Of a stretch of 64,000 nt of DNA, positions 3,047 to 55,805 are shown in pieces. Below the pieces are notes generated by a model. That model was not told where the DNA came from. It ran no database searches and was given only the letters and a program-made list of their open reading frames with translations. The position numbers and the translations under genes are program-made. Source of the stretch: Armatimonadetes bacterium CG06_land_8_20_14_3_00_66_21 (GTDB taxonomy: Bacteria; Armatimonadota; Abditibacteriia; CG2-30-66-41). Location of the stretch: NCBI GenBank assembly GCA_002779825.1, contig PEVN01000452.1:18371-82370 (forward strand), written 5' to 3'. Each line of letters begins with the position of its first letter. Within the stretch, counting starts at the first letter, position 1.

Positions 3047-4342
3047 ATGAACCAATCCCCAGCCTGGACGTTCCTGAAGACGACCCCCGTTCTCGTTCCC
3101 GGGGTGCTCGCCCTGTGCGGCTGCCTGTTGACGCAGCCGAGGAGTTGCGCCGCCACCTTCGGTGAAGATGTGGCGTTCCTGAAACAGCACTCCGATGTCA
3201 TTGTTCTGCGCGACGCCAGATCGGACGCGAAAGTGGCCGTGGTCCCCAGCATGCAGGGCCGCGTGATGACCAGCACAGCCCAAGGGGACCAGGGCGACAG
3301 CTTCGGCTGGATGAACAACGACCTCATCGCCAAGAATGAGCGACAGGACCACATCAACGTGTTCGGCGGCGAAGACCGCTTCTGGATGGGACCCGAGGGC
3401 GGGCAGTTCAGCATCTTCTTCAAGAAAGGCGACCCGTTCGATCTGCCGCACTGGCAGACGCCTGAGCCCATCGACTGGGGCGGCTGGGAAGTGGTGAAGC
3501 AGGGAACGTCGTCGGCGCACTTCCGCAAGCGGTTCCCATTCACCAACTACTCCGGCACGCGGTTCGACGTGACAGTGGACCGCGTCGTGAGCGTCTACAG
3601 CCGAACGGCAATCCAGAGGACCCTCGGCGTGAAGCTCGGCTACAGCCGAACGGCAATCCAGAGGACCCTCGGCGTGAAGCTCGGCAGCAACGTGAAGGCC
3701 GTCGGCTATGAGAGCGACAACCGCGTCACCAACTCCGGCGCCAATGCTTGGAGGAAGTCCACCGGGCTGCTGTCGGTGTGGATCCTCGGCATGTTCAAGC
3801 ATTCGCCGGCCACGACCATCGTCGTGCCGTTCAAGACTGGCCCCGAGTCCAAGCTCGGTCCCGTCGTGAACGACGCCTACTTCGGCAAGGTACCGGCGGA
3901 TCGGCTGAAGATCGACGCGAAGAAAGGCGTCGTCTACTTCAAAGGCGACGGCCAGTATCGCTCGAAGATCGGCGTCCCGCCCGGACGGGCGAAGGACCTC
4001 TTGGGCAGCTACAGCGCTGACAATCACTGCCTGACTCTGGTGAAGTTCACCCTCCCCAAGGGGGCGAAGGACTACGTGAACTCGATGTGGGAGATTCAGA
4101 AGAACCCGTTCGCCGGCGACGTGGCCAACAGCTACAACGACGGCCCGCCGGCGCCCGGCGCGAAACCGCTGGGACCGTTCTACGAGCTGGAATCCTCCTC
4201 CCCCGCGGCCGCTCTGGCACCCGGGAAGAGCCTGACCCACGTACACCGAACGATCCACGTGCAGGGACCGACGGCTGAGTTGGACCGGATCGCCAAGGCG
4301 ACGCTCGGTGTCGGGCTGGCGGAGATCGAGGCGGCGTTCTAA
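3047..4342 (+). CDS. Secreted hypothetical protein, DUF6786-like, with internal 15-residue tandem duplication
   Basis: A 431-residue exported protein of unknown function. Residues 1-37 form a signal peptide with a hydrophobic core (PVLVPGVLALCGCLL). The mature part is rich in beta-strand patterns, with features such as FGGEDRFWMGPEGGQFS and a C-terminal GKSLTHVHRTIHVQG that recall a galactose-mutarotase-like beta-sandwich. It resembles proteins grouped as DUF6786, but this match is from memory and unverified. A GGAGTTGAAG ribosome site precedes the ATG. Oddity: residues about 184-213 are two identical copies of the 15-residue unit YSRTAIQRTLGVKLG, identical in DNA as well, which suggests a recent duplication or an assembly artefact. 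It is followed after 143 bases by a second secreted protein in the same direction. Confidence 0.75.
   Translation: MNQSPAWTFLKTTPVLVPGVLALCGCLLTQPRSCAATFGEDVAFLKQHSDVIVLRDARSDAKVAVVPSMQGRVMTSTAQGDQGDSFGWMNNDLIAKNERQDHINVFGGEDRFWMGPEGGQFSIFFKKGDPFDLPHWQTPEPIDWGGWEVVKQGTSSAHFRKRFPFTNYSGTRFDVTVDRVVSVYSRTAIQRTLGVKLGYSRTAIQRTLGVKLGSNVKAVGYESDNRVTNSGANAWRKSTGLLSVWILGMFKHSPATTIVVPFKTGPESKLGPVVNDAYFGKVPADRLKIDAKKGVVYFKGDGQYRSKIGVPPGRAKDLLGSYSADNHCLTLVKFTLPKGAKDYVNSMWEIQKNPFAGDVANSYNDGPPAPGAKPLGPFYELESSSPAAALAPGKSLTHVHRTIHVQGPTAELDRIAKATLGVGLAEIEAAF
3596..3685 (+). repeat. Exact 45-bp tandem duplication inside a gene
   Basis: Bases 3596-3640 and 3641-3685 are identical, beginning TACAGCCGAACGGCAATCCA. 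The unit is a multiple of three, so the frame is kept and 15 residues are repeated. There are no mismatches between copies. Confidence 0.97.
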
Positions 4343-7574: not shown

Positions 7575-7784
7575 ATGCCATCGACGAGAGACCAGCGCTA
7601 CCTGGCGATTCTGCTGGACGCACTTCATGTGTGCAGGCAGTACAAGCCCAAGCTCGGGCACGGTGGGAGCGCCGGCTACTCGCTACGGGAATTCCAGGAG
7701 GTCTACGGGAACGACCCGTTCTACCGCTGGATGGGCCTTGACAATGCCCTCATGTACGCAGCCACAAGGCAGCCGGCGGCATGA
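7575..7784 (+). CDS. Small conserved-looking ORF leading the restriction-modification-like operon
   Basis: A 69-residue protein beginning MPSTRDQRYLAILLDALHVC. It is mostly helical and contains YSLREFQEVYGNDPFYRWMG, ending NALMYAA. The start at 7575 has a GGAG site; an upstream ATG at 7485 in frame would add 30 residues of less protein-like sequence. The stop overlaps the next start by ATGA (7781-7784), so translation is coupled. I do not recognise the family. It could be a subunit or a detached N-terminal domain of the endonuclease-like protein, or a control protein, although no helix-turn-helix is obvious. Confidence 0.6.
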   Translation: MPSTRDQRYLAILLDALHVCRQYKPKLGHGGSAGYSLREFQEVYGNDPFYRWMGLDNALMYAATRQPAA

Positions 7785-8386
7785 CCAGCATCTACCGGCA
7801 GATCGGGATAGGTTGCGAGCGGTTGTTCAGAGAGATCCTGCAAGACGCGCTGAGACTGTCGCCAGAAGAGGTCACATGGTCGTACACCGTCGCTCGAGCC
7901 GACGGCAGAAGTCAGACGCTCTCCCTGGACGGTCGCATCCTTTTTGACGCTGTGAGCGATTCAGACCGAAGGGGGCGCATTGCGGGTTGGGTTGATCAAG
8001 CTGCGCGTCGGCTTGACATTGACGGCAGGATCCGGCGGTCCATGAGCGGGGTGGTTTTCGAGATTCGGCAAGGCTACAAGAGCAAGGACTCGAAGCGCCA
8101 GAACGCCGACATTGCGAATGCGGCCACTGCATACACCAAGGGGTACCTGCCGTGCGTGGCCATACTGTCACAGCAGATCGATCGGGACATAGCCTTCCGG
8201 TACACGGCGGAGAAGTGGGCGCTGCTCACGGGCATCATGGGCAATGCGTCTCCGCACGACTCCTTCTACGCCTTCATGAAGGAAGTCGTCGGGTACGATC
8301 TCGCCCGTTTCTTCGAGAGGAATAGGGGACGACTGAAGAGCGAAGTCAAGCTCATTCTGGAGAGCCTGTTATCGGCGGACCAGTAG
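7781..8386 (+). CDS. Putative restriction endonuclease (PD-(D/E)XK-like), operon with methyltransferase
   Basis: A 201-residue cytoplasmic protein with no signal peptide or membrane segment. The central segment SGVVFEIRQGYKSKDSKRQN (about residues 88-107) puts an acidic residue and lysines on a beta-strand followed by a polar helix, the pattern expected around the catalytic core of PD-(D/E)XK nucleases. LSLDGRILFDAV (about 46-57) could supply the upstream acidic residue. The C-terminus is helical (GYDLARFFERN). Position is the strongest argument: it is coupled to a small upstream ORF and followed within about ten bases by a DNA methyltransferase, as in type II restriction-modification operons. 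Enzyme activity and recognition site cannot be read from sequence. A non-nuclease partner of the methyltransferase is the main alternative. Confidence 0.55.
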   Translation: MTSIYRQIGIGCERLFREILQDALRLSPEEVTWSYTVARADGRSQTLSLDGRILFDAVSDSDRRGRIAGWVDQAARRLDIDGRIRRSMSGVVFEIRQGYKSKDSKRQNADIANAATAYTKGYLPCVAILSQQIDRDIAFRYTAEKWALLTGIMGNASPHDSFYAFMKEVVGYDLARFFERNRGRLKSEVKLILESLLSADQ

Positions 8387-8396
8387 AGTGCGTGCC

Positions 8397-9641
8397 ATGG
8401 CAATCCCCAACACTGTCAGCCAACGGGCTGACTACACCTTCAAGTTCAACCGCCATCTGGGCCGCCACGGCTGGTTGAGACTGACCCCGGCATACTCAGT
8501 TAAACTGGTCGAGGAGATCCTGCAGACGGTGCCTCCGGAGTCCCGCGTGCTCGACCCATTTTCGGGCACGGCCACGACGCCGCTCTGCGCGGGGTACCGA
8601 GGGTTTTCGGCCGTGGGGCTGGAATTGAACCCCTTTTTGGTGTGGCTCGCCCAGGCCAAGACGGACCACTACCGCGCCTCGGACGTCCACGACGCGAGTG
8701 CAGCAGGACGGGACTTGGCTGAACGACTGCGGCGCGGGAGGCCGACACCAAGCTGCGCGCCCCCGATTCACAACATCGAACGATGGTGGGACGAGACCGA
8801 GCTCGCCTTCCTCTGCGCACTGAAAGGCGCGATTGGCCAGGGGCAACCCGACGACACCAAGGCCACGAGGCTGCTCCTCGTATGCTTCTGCCGGCTTGTG
8901 ATCAAGCTGTCGAACGCGGCGTTCAACCACCAATCCATGTCGTTCAAGCAGAAGAGCGCCGGTTCCGGCCAACTGCAACTCCTGCCCGACGAACCCGACT
9001 TCGTTTCCCTCTTCAAGGGCGAACTCGACGAAGTGCTCGCGGGCGCCCGCGACAACCCCCCCACGGTGCCAGAGATCGTCCAGGGCAACGCAAGGGACAT
9101 GGCCGCTGTCCGAGGACGGACGTTTGACTGCGTTATTACGTCGCCTCCGTACCCCAACCGGATCTCGTACATCAGGGAGCTTCGTCCGTACATGTACTGG
9201 CTCGGGTACCTCTCGAATGGACGAGAGGCTGGGGACTTGGACTGGGAAGCCATCGGCGGGACTTGGGGCGTGGCCACGAGCAGGCTGTCCGAGTGGGAAC
9301 GAAGCCCAGACGGCTTCTACCCCCCCTACTTCGCCGCTCTGTTGGAAGCGATCCGTCATGCCAGCGAGAAGAACGGTCCGCTTCTCTCGGACTACGTCGC
9401 GCGCTACTTCGAGGACATATGGCTCCACCTTCAGCGGATGCGCGCGCTATTGCCCACCGACGCACGGGTCCACTACATCATCGGCAACTCGACCTTCTAC
9501 GATGTTCTCGTGCCTGTAGAGCGACTCTATGTGGACATGCTCAGGGAGTTGGGATTCCGGCACATCGAGGTGCGCACGATCCGCAAGCGGAACTCCAAGA
9601 GGGCGCTCTATGAGTTCGATGTCTCGGCGACATCCGGGTGA
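8397..9641 (+). CDS. Site-specific DNA methyltransferase, N4-cytosine/N6-adenine type, motif I before motif IV
   Basis: A 414-residue DNA methyltransferase. The AdoMet-binding motif I, DPFSGTATT, lies near residue 45 and is followed by a motif-II-like AVGLELNPF. The catalytic motif IV, CVITSPPYPNRISYIRE, is near 245-260. TSPPY is characteristic of N4-cytosine enzymes, though N6-adenine cannot be excluded. In the common beta group SPPY comes first and DPFxGSGTT last; here the order is reversed, so this is a permuted form. About 150-220 probably holds target recognition. The ATG at 8397 is chosen; a GTG at 8388 in frame is also possible. It follows the endonuclease-like gene directly and should protect host DNA if that protein is a nuclease. 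Confidence 0.85.
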   Translation: MAIPNTVSQRADYTFKFNRHLGRHGWLRLTPAYSVKLVEEILQTVPPESRVLDPFSGTATTPLCAGYRGFSAVGLELNPFLVWLAQAKTDHYRASDVHDASAAGRDLAERLRRGRPTPSCAPPIHNIERWWDETELAFLCALKGAIGQGQPDDTKATRLLLVCFCRLVIKLSNAAFNHQSMSFKQKSAGSGQLQLLPDEPDFVSLFKGELDEVLAGARDNPPTVPEIVQGNARDMAAVRGRTFDCVITSPPYPNRISYIRELRPYMYWLGYLSNGREAGDLDWEAIGGTWGVATSRLSEWERSPDGFYPPYFAALLEAIRHASEKNGPLLSDYVARYFEDIWLHLQRMRALLPTDARVHYIIGNSTFYDVLVPVERLYVDMLRELGFRHIEVRTIRKRNSKRALYEFDVSATSG

Positions 9642-14535: not shown

Positions 14536-16308
14536 ATGGCAATGATGCCCGTGATTGAGCGGATGTGGAGAACCTGTTGGACCGTGACTGTGCTGAGCCT
14601 CAGCGCGGGTCGCTGTCCGGTGCAGGGCGCGGAAGTGAAGGTGTGGAACGGCGACTACGTCCCGCCGCCGCGGCCGCTCAAGACCGAAGTCACAGTCGGT
14701 GCTTACGTCTTCCCAGGCTGGTACCGCGATGAGGGCAAGGGCGACTACCCCTACAAGACCCACGACGAGGACAGCGAGTGGCGCCAGGTCGCCAAGTGTC
14801 CGAAGCCGCGACCACTGCTTGGCTTCTACGAGGATTCGCTGCCGGAGGTCAACGACTGGCACATCAAGTGGGCGCTTGAGCATGGGGTGTCCTTCTTCTG
14901 CTTCGACTGGTACTGGAACGCCGGCGAACACCGACTGCTCCGCACTTTGGAGCGCGGGTTCCTGAAGGCGAAGTACTGCGACCAGATGAAGTTCTGTATC
15001 CACTGGTGCAATCACGGGCTGGATTGGCGGAACAAGAAGTGGAACCGCCCTCTGGACGAAGACTTCCGGACCAAGGCGCTGGTCGAGATGAGCGAGTACC
15101 TCGCCGACAACTACTTCAAGCTGCCGAACTACCTGAGGCTCGAAGGACGGCCCGTCCTCGTGGTCTGGGACGCCAAGAGCCTCATTCAGGCCAATGGCGG
15201 CGCAGCCGGGTTTGCCGCCGCGCTGGACGCGATGAACAAGGCGCTTCGGGACCGAGGAATACCGACCCTCTACCTACTCGCCATGTCCAACAGCCAGGGG
15301 ATCCGAGCGGGGGGCTTCGCCGCCACCACCGGGTACGGCTACTACGGGACCGACTACGACTCGAAGTACGAGTGGCGCGCCGGCCGCAGCGTCCCGTACG
15401 ACGAAGTCGTCAAGCACTATGAATCGGTGTGGCGGGGGATCACCGCTGACCCTGTGCTCCCTTACGTGGTGGCCATCGGCTCCAACTGGGACAGCCGCCC
15501 GCGTGCCGGCGATAATGCGGCCGTCATTTCCGGCAAGACGCCTGCGAAGTTCGAGACCATGTGCCGGAACAGCCTGAAGTACGTCGACAAGGGGCTGAAC
15601 CTGGCGATCATCGAGGCTTGGAACGAGTGGGGCGAAGGCAGCTTCATCGAGCCGGACAAGGAGTTCGGCTTCGGGTTCCTGGACGCTGTGCGGAGGGTGT
15701 TCGGCGACGGGACGGGCAACCATCCCGACTACGTGCCCACGCCGGAGAAGATCGCCTCCTTCAGCGTGCTGAAGGGCGACGAACTCGCCAAGGCCAGTGA
15801 GGTCGAGAAGCAGCCGTACCTCGATCCGCCGCTGTCGCTGCGAACCGTGGAGTGGAAGATCGATGAGCCGTTGCCCGACACCAAGGTGCTCAGAGGATGG
15901 GAGTTCGACGGCGCTTCCAGCGAGGGCTGGATGCCCTACCATATTGAGCCGCTCGCCGTGCGCGACGGCGTGCTCCTGACCGCTGTCACGACCGAGGATC
16001 CACAACTCATCGTCGACAATGTGGGCGTGACCCTCGACGACATGGGGTGTCTTGCGCTGCGGCTCCGCGTGCCCGACGGGGTCTCCTCCTGCGAGCTGTT
16101 CTGGACGACTGCAGCCGAGCCGACCATGTCTGCCGACAAGGCCTTCCGGTTTCCGCTCAAGGGCGAGGGACAGTGGCACACGTACCAGGTCGCCAAAGCG
16201 GCGGAAGGCAAGTGGAGCGGGGCGCTGAAGGTCCTCCGGCTCGACCTCGGCGGGCCCGGGGACAAGCTCGAAGTGGACTGGATACGGCTATATGGCAAAC
16301 AACGTTAG
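14536..16308 (+). CDS. Secreted WbsX-type (GH99-like) protein with C-terminal beta-sandwich
   Basis: A 590-residue exported protein. Residues 1-32 are a signal peptide. About 50-400 matches the WbsX/GH99-like family: VGAYVFPGWYRDEGKGDYPY, HGVSFFCFDWYWN, FCIHWCNHGLDWRNKKWN, YLRLEGRPVLVVWD, and the diagnostic IIEAWNEWGEGSFIEP near 358-373. Family members have been linked to polysaccharide biosynthesis and degradation; GH99 enzymes cut mannan-type glycans. About 430-590 is a beta-sandwich (RGWEFDGASSEGW ... LRLDLGG), probably carbohydrate binding. A 12-bp inverted repeat flanks its ribosome site. The stop overlaps the start of the next, broken gene by 17 bases, so they were co-translated. Confidence 0.85.
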   Translation: MAMMPVIERMWRTCWTVTVLSLSAGRCPVQGAEVKVWNGDYVPPPRPLKTEVTVGAYVFPGWYRDEGKGDYPYKTHDEDSEWRQVAKCPKPRPLLGFYEDSLPEVNDWHIKWALEHGVSFFCFDWYWNAGEHRLLRTLERGFLKAKYCDQMKFCIHWCNHGLDWRNKKWNRPLDEDFRTKALVEMSEYLADNYFKLPNYLRLEGRPVLVVWDAKSLIQANGGAAGFAAALDAMNKALRDRGIPTLYLLAMSNSQGIRAGGFAATTGYGYYGTDYDSKYEWRAGRSVPYDEVVKHYESVWRGITADPVLPYVVAIGSNWDSRPRAGDNAAVISGKTPAKFETMCRNSLKYVDKGLNLAIIEAWNEWGEGSFIEPDKEFGFGFLDAVRRVFGDGTGNHPDYVPTPEKIASFSVLKGDELAKASEVEKQPYLDPPLSLRTVEWKIDEPLPDTKVLRGWEFDGASSEGWMPYHIEPLAVRDGVLLTAVTTEDPQLIVDNVGVTLDDMGCLALRLRVPDGVSSCELFWTTAAEPTMSADKAFRFPLKGEGQWHTYQVAKAAEGKWSGALKVLRLDLGGPGDKLEVDWIRLYGKQR

Positions 16309-17360
16309 CGTGTGCGTGAGACGCGCGCCCTCGGGTCGGCCGGGCCGGACCCACCGCCCTGTCGGTGTGGCAGCCATCGCGACTTCGCTCCTGCTGACAG
16401 CGCTGGCCGCGGCCGACTGGCGCGATCACCCCGAGCTCCCCGACTGGGCCCGTCGCGGCTATGTGCAATGGGGGCACGGGGCCAACATTGACGGGCGCAT
16501 CAAGTGGGGAGCCGGTGGGTTCGGCGCGGACGTGGCCAACGTGAAGCTGCTGCTGTATTGCGGGCGCAACCTGCAGCAGACCATCGCATCCCTCGACGAC
16601 GAGGCGGCGCGGCTGGCGAACGAGGGCGGCCTGCGCAGACAGCCGTACATCTGCAGCCAGACCGTGTGGTGGCGCACGGAGGAGACGAAGACGCCGGAGC
16701 TGATCGGTGCCGTCCGACAGGGGCTTGACGGCAAACCGATCATCATCTACAGCAACCCCGACCGCCATTGCGGCTGCTACAACGCACCGTTCTGGCTGGA
16801 GTACACGAAGCAGAAGATCAAGACCACCGTCGAGGGTGGTGGTATCGCTCAACGGGCAGGATCTGAAGACGTACAACGGCTCCGAACTGCGGAACGCGGG
16901 CTGGTACGCGGTGCCTGTCCCCGACGGAGTCCTCAAGGAGAGCAACGACGTCACCTTCCGCGCGCTGGGGAAGCCCAACGGCCACCCGGACTGGTTCGCG
17001 CTGAAGATCGACACTGAAGCCGCCACGCGCCGCTCGTCGTGGTCCGAGGAGGACGGCAACACCTGGACCGAAGCGGACCTGTCTCCGGACCCCGGCGCGC
17101 AGACGGGCGAGTACTTGGTGCGCCTTGGACCGCCGACCGACCCCGACGCCGTTGCGAAGCCCGAGGACTTCATGGGGAAGCTGCACGTGCGACCGGCACG
17201 CGCGGTCGAGGTGGTGCTCAGGACGGTGGGACCGGCACCCCTCGGGAAGCTCGTCTCGCCCGACGGGCCAGACCAGACGATAGCGCCGACCATCGACGGC
17301 GACTTCGCGACGTACCGCATTCCGGAAGTCTACGTCTACTCAGTGCTGGTGCTGCGCTGA
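16292..17360 (+). pseudogene. Broken secreted glycosidase-like gene (frameshift, probable internal deletion)
   Basis: Two frames together form one damaged gene. The first, from the ATG at 16292, gives a signal peptide (VGVAAIATSLLLTALAAA) and a catalytic-barrel start: WARRGYVQWGHGANIDGR, VKLLLYCGRNLQQ, CSQTVWWRTEETKTPELI and FWLEYTKQKIKTT. Sense is lost near 16835. The second frame carries on from about 16838 to the stop at 17360: VVSLNGQDLKTYNGSELRNA, HPDWFALKIDTEAA, EVYVYSVLVLR, a beta-domain. The join sits in GGGTGGTGGTA. Related barrel proteins have several hundred residues between such N-terminal and C-terminal parts, so a deletion as well as a frameshift is likely. A sequencing error alone would not restore a full barrel. 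Confidence 0.7.
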
Positions 17361-54932: not shown

Positions 54933-55805
54933 ATGACAGAACAAGACCCCCCCCTATCTCAGGCCAAAGGCGTCTTCACCGACGAGGCGCGGCCGCTCCC
55001 GGCAAACCTCGCCAACGTCCATGTCGTGCTCGTCCAGCCGCAGGTCCCCGGCAACATCGGCGCTGCGGCCAGAGCGATGAGGGCCATGGGGTTGTCGAAC
55101 TTGGTGCTCGTCGACCCCTGCGACTACGGCCCGAAGACAGAAGCGCCGGCGCGTGCGCGCGTCGCCCAGGAGATCCTGGACAACGCAAGAGTGGTAGAGA
55201 CGCTGGACGCAGGGCTCGAAGGGCTGACACTCGTCCTTGGCACGACCGCAAAGCGCCGAGGGCAGGGGATGCGCAGCATCGTCCCGCTCCGCGAAGGCAT
55301 CGCGGAGCTGCTTCCGGTCTCGCAGACCCAGCCGGTGGGTCTGCTGTTCGGCCGCGAGCAGTGGGGACTCGACAAGTCCGAGTTGGGCAGGTGCCAGCTC
55401 TGGGCGAGCATCCCCAGCCCCCACCGGAGCCTGTCCCTCAACCTCTCGCACGCCGTGATGGTTGCCTGCTACGAGGTCTACACCCAGAGCTGCGGTGAGT
55501 TTGAGACGATCCCCCTCGAAGCAGCGCCCCTCAACGAAGTCGAGCGCATGTACGACCACCTCAACTCCGCCCTGATCGAGGTCGGCTTCGCCCCTCGCGG
55601 TGGTAAGGAGGCCTTCACCCAGTCGCTCCGCCGCGCCTTCTCGCGTGCCCAGCTCGAGACCCGAGACGTCGAGGTGTTCCACCGGATCGCGCAGCAGATG
55701 GAGTGGTTTGCGCGGAAGGGGTGGCAGCGGGTGCGGGCCTCGGCCGATCCGGGAATGCCGCCGGCTGAAGACCAAGGACCAGAAGGACCTCAGGGACAGC
55801 AGTGA
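54933..55805 (+). CDS. trmJ: SpoU/TrmJ-type RNA 2'-O-methyltransferase
   Basis: A trefoil-knot (SPOUT) methyltransferase that puts a 2'-O-methyl group on RNA, in TrmJ at position 32 of tRNAs. The 290 residues carry motif 1 VLVQPQVPGNIGAAARAMRA, motif 2 VGLLFGREQWGLDKSEL and motif 3 LSLNLSHAVMVACYEVY, plus a helical C-terminus (MYDHLNSALIEVGF). The target site is inferred from overall TrmJ-like length and motifs. ATG 54933 is chosen; the frame is open upstream but overlaps the phosphodiesterase gene. The tail after residue 270 is low-complexity (PPAEDQGPEGPQGQQ). Confidence 0.87.
   Translation: MTEQDPPLSQAKGVFTDEARPLPANLANVHVVLVQPQVPGNIGAAARAMRAMGLSNLVLVDPCDYGPKTEAPARARVAQEILDNARVVETLDAGLEGLTLVLGTTAKRRGQGMRSIVPLREGIAELLPVSQTQPVGLLFGREQWGLDKSELGRCQLWASIPSPHRSLSLNLSHAVMVACYEVYTQSCGEFETIPLEAAPLNEVERMYDHLNSALIEVGFAPRGGKEAFTQSLRRAFSRAQLETRDVEVFHRIAQQMEWFARKGWQRVRASADPGMPPAEDQGPEGPQGQQ

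What the first reader, a model, noticed from the sequence alone, without database searches (positions are those of the whole stretch)
7575..9641. Compact restriction-modification-like island with a permuted methyltransferase and an unknown small partner
Three same-strand ORFs are coupled (ATGA overlap, then about ten bases). The last is a methyltransferase with DPFSGTATT before TSPPY, opposite to the usual beta order. The middle ORF has a nuclease-like FEIRQGYKSKDSK segment. The 69-residue leader is unrecognised. Its lack of assigned relatives by eye makes this the best candidate for an undescribed defence module.
Basis: partly seen in the sequence, partly recalled or inferred. Interest (0 to 1): 0.65.

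Follow-up and report, generated by a model that had tools for sequence, protein, structure and literature searches.

The report
Frame-broken Type II restriction-modification operon
This is an ordinary, widespread bacterial restriction-modification gene pair whose DNA-cutting enzyme gene has been split in two by a single-base frame break (a recent mutation or an assembly error), so the supposed unknown small partner is just the front end of the cutting enzyme.

Summary
The ORFs exist, but the first two are one gene. ORF1 (69 aa) matches profile positions 8-68, and ORF2 (201 aa) positions 73-275, of the same PADLOC Type II restriction enzyme model (PDLC03512, 276 aa). In homologues this is one 260-290 aa ORF directly upstream of the same methyltransferase. 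A DNA alignment has one gap column, at about window 7756. Coding frame switches near 7761, before the ATG of ORF2, and HKAAGG, the family sequence, is read just upstream of that ATG. The ATGA overlap is a by-product. The methyltransferase is not newly permuted: it has the alpha-class order (motif I, target domain, TSPPY) and aligns full length with the characterised alpha-class N4-cytosine enzyme M.DraR1 (26%; PMC6712171). The endonuclease model has PD-(D/E)XK-like topology with invariant D and E, but no significant structural match. Breaks in homologues differ in place and kind (3 nonsense, 4 frameshifts), as in repeated loss of restriction with modification kept. Here every residue conserved in at least 95% of homologues is retained in ORF2, and another gene in the window is also frame-broken, so an assembly error is equally possible. 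Ordinary; low interest.

The parts
7575..7784 (+). ORF1: N-terminal about 63 residues of the Type II REase, then out-of-frame tail (ATRQPAA) and stop
   Evidence: PDLC03512 positions 8-68, E 3.3e-16; aligned with the N-termini of fused relatives
7755..7764 (+). frame break (net one base missing relative to the relatives)
   Evidence: single gap column in the DNA alignment; best join of the two frames by profile score; codon-usage frame switch at 7761/7762
7781..8386 (+). ORF2: C-terminal three quarters of the same REase, with the predicted nuclease core
   Evidence: PDLC03512 positions 73-275, E 1.1e-56; AlphaFold model pLDDT 90.9; no deviation at columns conserved in 95% or more of homologues
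7928..7930 (+). invariant Asp50 of ORF2 (SLDGRI), candidate metal ligand
   Evidence: invariant in a 50-sequence alignment; at a beta-strand in the model
8060..8102 (+). invariant E94-x-R96-QGYK100-SKDSKRQ motif, candidate catalytic segment
   Evidence: invariant or at least 90% conserved columns
8388..9641 (+). alpha-class amino-methyltransferase (probable N4-cytosine), cognate modification enzyme, intact
   Evidence: PADLOC MTase_II models to E 8.8e-22; 26% identity over 405 aa to M.DraR1; intact homologue next to the REase in nearly all loci
8553..8579 (+). motif I DPFSGTATT (AdoMet binding)
   Evidence: translation; aligned to DPFGGVGTT of M.DraR1
9138..9152 (+). motif IV TSPPY (catalytic)
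   Evidence: translation; aligned to TSPPY of M.DraR1

Best explanation
The locus is a two-gene Type II restriction-modification operon, REase then alpha-class methyltransferase, from a large family found across many phyla. ORF1 and ORF2 are one REase of about 270 aa that is interrupted by a net one-base loss at about 7755-7764. In intact members the methyltransferase would protect a cytosine-containing site (probably N4-methylcytosine) and the PD-(D/E)XK-like REase would cut unmodified DNA. In this genome, if the sequence is right, restriction is lost and only modification remains. Shown: one gene in relatives, the place and nature of the break, co-occurrence, the methyltransferase class. Inferred: activity, modified base, site, loss of function.
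For: Both ORFs match one 276-aa Type II REase model end to end. Fused single ORF plus adjacent methyltransferase in L004, L006, L007 and in about 74 of 78 genome loci not cut by a contig end. One gap column in the DNA alignment. Frame switch near 7761 without homology. Best join at about 7764 gives 375.9 bits. The family sequence HKAAGG, including the invariant H and G, lies upstream of the apparent ORF2 start, so neither product carries it. All 9 genomes of the phylum with a strong methyltransferase match have the REase directly upstream, broken in 4 at different places while the methyltransferase is intact. Full-length homology to M.DraR1, a proven alpha-class N4-cytosine enzyme (PMC6712171). 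In phage contig L088 the same REase family sits directly after a C5-cytosine methyltransferase instead, which suggests that the protected base is a cytosine.
Against: Foldseek found no PDB match at E up to 0.001 for either model, so the nuclease fold rests on topology and on weak hits to PD-(D/E)XK enzymes. The usual E-x-K is E-x-R here. No family member has a recorded cutting assay in anything I found. ORF2 shows no further decay, which allows that the gene is intact in the living organism.
Confidence: 0.94

Rival explanations
1. The frame break is a sequencing or assembly error in this draft genome; the REase gene is intact in the organism and the restriction-modification system is functional. 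(A sub-question of the best explanation: what caused the break.)
For: ORF2 keeps every residue that is at least 95% conserved. Another gene in the same window (16292-17360) also changes frame at about 16835 with an overlap of some 300 bases, and the DUF6786 gene contains an exact 15-aa tandem duplication. The assembly is 578 contigs with 6.6% contamination.
Against: Three homologues carry in-frame nonsense codons (L059, L086, L096), which are unlikely as indel errors and show that real REase loss happens in the family.
Confidence: 0.5
2. The break is real and recent: the REase is a pseudogene and the methyltransferase a remnant that still modifies DNA. (The other answer to the same sub-question.)
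For: The REase is broken in 4 of 9 methyltransferase-anchored genomes of the phylum, at different places, with the methyltransferase intact. Loss of the REase before the methyltransferase is the expected order of Type II decay (PMC6471742).
Against: No second lesion, and local signs of assembly noise.
Confidence: 0.45
3. A genuine two-subunit restriction enzyme: ORF1 and ORF2 are translationally coupled through ATGA and assemble.
For: ATGA overlap; the break falls close to the loop between two predicted helices (residues 59-68 and 72-94 of the relative).
Against: No relative has the split at this place. The ATG is only the Met of GGMTS in the fused chain, and is Ile in L006 and L007. The invariant His and Gly just before it are lost from both products.
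Confidence: 0.03
4. Programmed -1 frameshifting or phase variation joins the two frames.
For: Only the frame relation itself.
Against: No X-XXY-YYZ slippery heptamer or long simple repeat seen by eye in 7740-7784 (sequence). Relatives need no shift, and their breaks differ in position and direction.
Confidence: 0.02

Closest known systems
PADLOC-DB PDLC03512, Type II restriction enzyme
   Same: ORF1 and ORF2 together cover the whole 276-aa model; intact relatives match at E 1e-64 to 1e-81
   Different: In the window the chain is interrupted by a frame break; the name of the prototype enzyme and its target could not be recovered here
M.DraR1 of Deinococcus radiodurans (alpha-class N4-cytosine methyltransferase, CCGCGG; PMC6712171)
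   Same: 26% identity over 405 residues, same motif order, TSPPY at the same place
   Different: Partner REase there is a GIY-YIG enzyme encoded ten ORFs away (PMC10855626). Identity is low, so the site need not be CCGCGG
Decayed Type II systems with lost REase and retained methyltransferase (for example PMC6471742)
   Same: Intact methyltransferase next to a disrupted REase gene
   Different: Here the loss rests on one base in a draft assembly and is not confirmed by reads

Membership tests
Type II restriction-modification system | REase gene and methyltransferase gene adjacent and inherited together | tested here: met
   All 9 methyltransferase-anchored genomes of the phylum and all 80 REase-anchored genome loci have both, side by side
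Type II restriction-modification system | REase homologous to a known Type II restriction enzyme family | tested here: met
   PDLC03512, E 3.3e-16 (ORF1) and 1.1e-56 (ORF2)
Type II restriction-modification system | Intact REase reading frame | tested here: not met
   One-base frame break at about 7755-7764; the locus belongs to the family by descent, but is not shown to be a working member
Type II restriction-modification system | Both enzymes act on the same DNA site; methylation blocks cutting | not testable with these tools
   Needs methylation calls and a cleavage assay
Alpha-class DNA amino-methyltransferase | Order AdoMet motif I, target recognition region, catalytic motif IV | tested here: met
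   Motif I aa 56-64, about 185 residues, TSPPY aa 251-255. The order is the alpha definition in PMC2890505. Full-length alignment with alpha-class M.DraR1
Alpha-class DNA amino-methyltransferase | Methylates N4-cytosine (or N6-adenine) | not testable with these tools
   SPPY and the M.DraR1 homology point to N4-cytosine; not measured
PD-(D/E)XK nuclease | alpha-beta-beta-beta-alpha-beta core | tested here: inconclusive
   Models with pLDDT about 90 show this order of elements. The best PDB hits of the full-length model include PD-(D/E)XK enzymes (Card1, MspJI) but none at E up to 0.001
PD-(D/E)XK nuclease | Conserved D ... (D/E)xK residues | tested here: inconclusive
   D50 and E94 of ORF2 invariant; E-x-R in place of E-x-K, with an invariant K100 nearby
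Heteromeric (two-chain) Type II REase | The two chains are encoded separately in relatives | tested here: not met
   Relatives have one chain, and the broken ones break elsewhere

The most novel reading that the evidence does not exclude
A naturally split form of this REase family in which a 69-residue chain and a 201-residue chain, coupled by ATGA, reassemble into an active endonuclease.
Probability: 0.03. Interest if true: 0.35.

Novelty: new member of a known kind. Interest (0 to 1): 0.1.

Why it matters
Little by itself. It removes a false lead: a small unknown defence partner that is the front end of a restriction enzyme. It also shows a widespread but little-described REase family, without a Pfam model, that is paired with an alpha-class methyltransferase in nearly all loci and with a C5 methyltransferase in one phage contig, and that seems to lose its REase repeatedly.

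Tried and rejected
Unknown small partner: rejected, because ORF1 is the REase N-terminus. Permuted methyltransferase: rejected, it is alpha class. Conserved split gene: rejected, because breaks in L020, L045, L059, L086, L091, L093 and L096 lie elsewhere. Apparent clustering of frameshifts in the N-terminal region was considered; the REase-anchored set was chosen by the best match to ORF2, which favours breaks outside ORF2, and the methyltransferase-anchored set shows no cluster. Pfam, NCBIfam, phage and plasmid searches for the REase gave nothing. PDB sequence and fold searches gave no significant relative.

Full report
Observation. The three same-strand ORFs are present as described: 7575-7784, 7781-8386 and 8388-9641. 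The ORF1/ORF2 overlap is ATGA. The methyltransferase has a GTG one base after the ORF2 stop, or an ATG ten bases after it. DPFSGTATT (aa 56-64) precedes TSPPY (aa 251-255).

ORF1 and ORF2 are one gene. Scanned separately, ORF1 matches positions 8-68 and ORF2 positions 73-275 of the same PADLOC model, PDLC03512, a 276-aa Type II restriction enzyme (E 3.3e-16 and 1.1e-56). The first relatives found, one in IMG/VR (L004) and two in genomes of the same phylum (L006, L007), carry a single ORF of 279, 292 and 262 aa that matches the whole model, followed at once by the same methyltransferase. The DNA alignment over the junction has one gap column, at about 7756. A codon-usage path over the window, which knows nothing of homologues, changes frame at 7761/7762, about 20 bases before the ATG of ORF2. 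The frame of ORF2 reads HKAAGG just upstream of that ATG, as the family does, while the ORF1 frame turns into ATRQPAA. Piecewise reading of the two frames scores best when joined at about 7764 (375.9 bits). The ATG of ORF2 is the Met of GGMTS in fused relatives, and is Ile in two of them, so the ATGA overlap is accidental.

Is the split conserved? No. A genome-contig scan gave 281 loci, of which the best 80 were kept, from many phyla (Pseudomonadota, Planctomycetota, Nitrospirota, Chloroflexota, Elusimicrobiota, Acidobacteriota, a methanogen and others). Among those not cut by a contig end the REase is one ORF in about 74 of 78. The exceptions are frame changes in L020 and L045 and in-frame stops in L059 and L086. 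In a methyltransferase-anchored search of 291 genomes of the phylum, 9 had a strong match. All 9 have the REase directly upstream, and it is broken in 4: the window, L091 and L093 by frameshift and L096 by an in-frame stop. The breaks differ in place and kind and none coincides with the window's. So ORF1 is not a partner, and the REase gene is repeatedly lost while the methyltransferase stays, which is the expected order of decay of a Type II system (PMC6471742).

Real break or artefact? ORF2 still has every residue that is conserved in at least 95% of homologues, so the break is very recent or false. In the same window a second gene changes frame at about 16835 with an overlap of some 300 bases, and a DUF6786 gene contains an exact 15-residue tandem duplication. 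The assembly is a 578-contig draft. I cannot decide between the two without reads and give them about equal weight.

The methyltransferase. PADLOC MTase_II models match to E 8.8e-22. The order AdoMet motif, recognition region, catalytic motif is the definition of the alpha class (PMC2890505). It aligns over 405 residues with M.DraR1 of Deinococcus radiodurans (26%), shown experimentally to be an alpha-class N4-cytosine methyltransferase for CCGCGG (PMC6712171). The partner of M.DraR1 is a GIY-YIG enzyme encoded elsewhere (PMC10855626), so only the methyltransferase, not the whole system, is related.

The endonuclease. AlphaFold models of a full-length relative (pLDDT 89.8) and of ORF2 (90.9) show helix, three strands, helix, strand, with invariant D50 and E94 on or next to strands and an invariant QGYK-x-K-x-x-KRQ stretch after E94. 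This fits a PD-(D/E)XK core with E-x-R instead of E-x-K. Foldseek's first hits for the full-length model include PD-(D/E)XK enzymes (Card1, MspJI) but none is significant. The fold assignment is therefore probable, not proven.

Mechanism. In intact members the methyltransferase marks a cytosine-containing site and the REase cuts the unmarked site (inference from the family). In one phage contig (L088) the same REase family follows a C5-cytosine methyltransferase instead (PF00145, E 1.5e-61), which suggests that methylation of a cytosine by either chemistry protects the site. In the window, if the break is real, only modification remains.

Verdict. A new member of a known kind, frame-broken, of low interest.

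Noticed in passing
16292-17360: Second frame-broken gene in the window: coding frame changes at about 16835, the two open frames overlap by about 300 bases; no Pfam match to either part.
   Followed up: partly
3047-4342: DUF6786 gene with an exact tandem duplication of 15 residues (YSRTAIQRTLGVKLG); Pfam matches in two stretches. Slippage or assembly artefact.
   Followed up: no
L088:1610-3597: Phage contig (terminase-like genes nearby, by eye) where this REase family directly follows a C5-cytosine methyltransferase instead of the alpha-class enzyme: a partner swap.
   Followed up: partly
55576-55805: Possible third frame change near 55745 between two + strand frames.
   Followed up: no
L002, L003 (G000:C387:12702-13880): A second, distant alpha-order methyltransferase in the same genome (27-39% identity in two stretches of one 492-aa frame).
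   Followed up: no
L097:2690-3487: Morganella morganii plasmid p81703-2 encodes a 'hypothetical protein' 40% identical to the C-terminal 63% of the methyltransferase: apparently a truncated copy on a small mobilizable plasmid.
   Followed up: no
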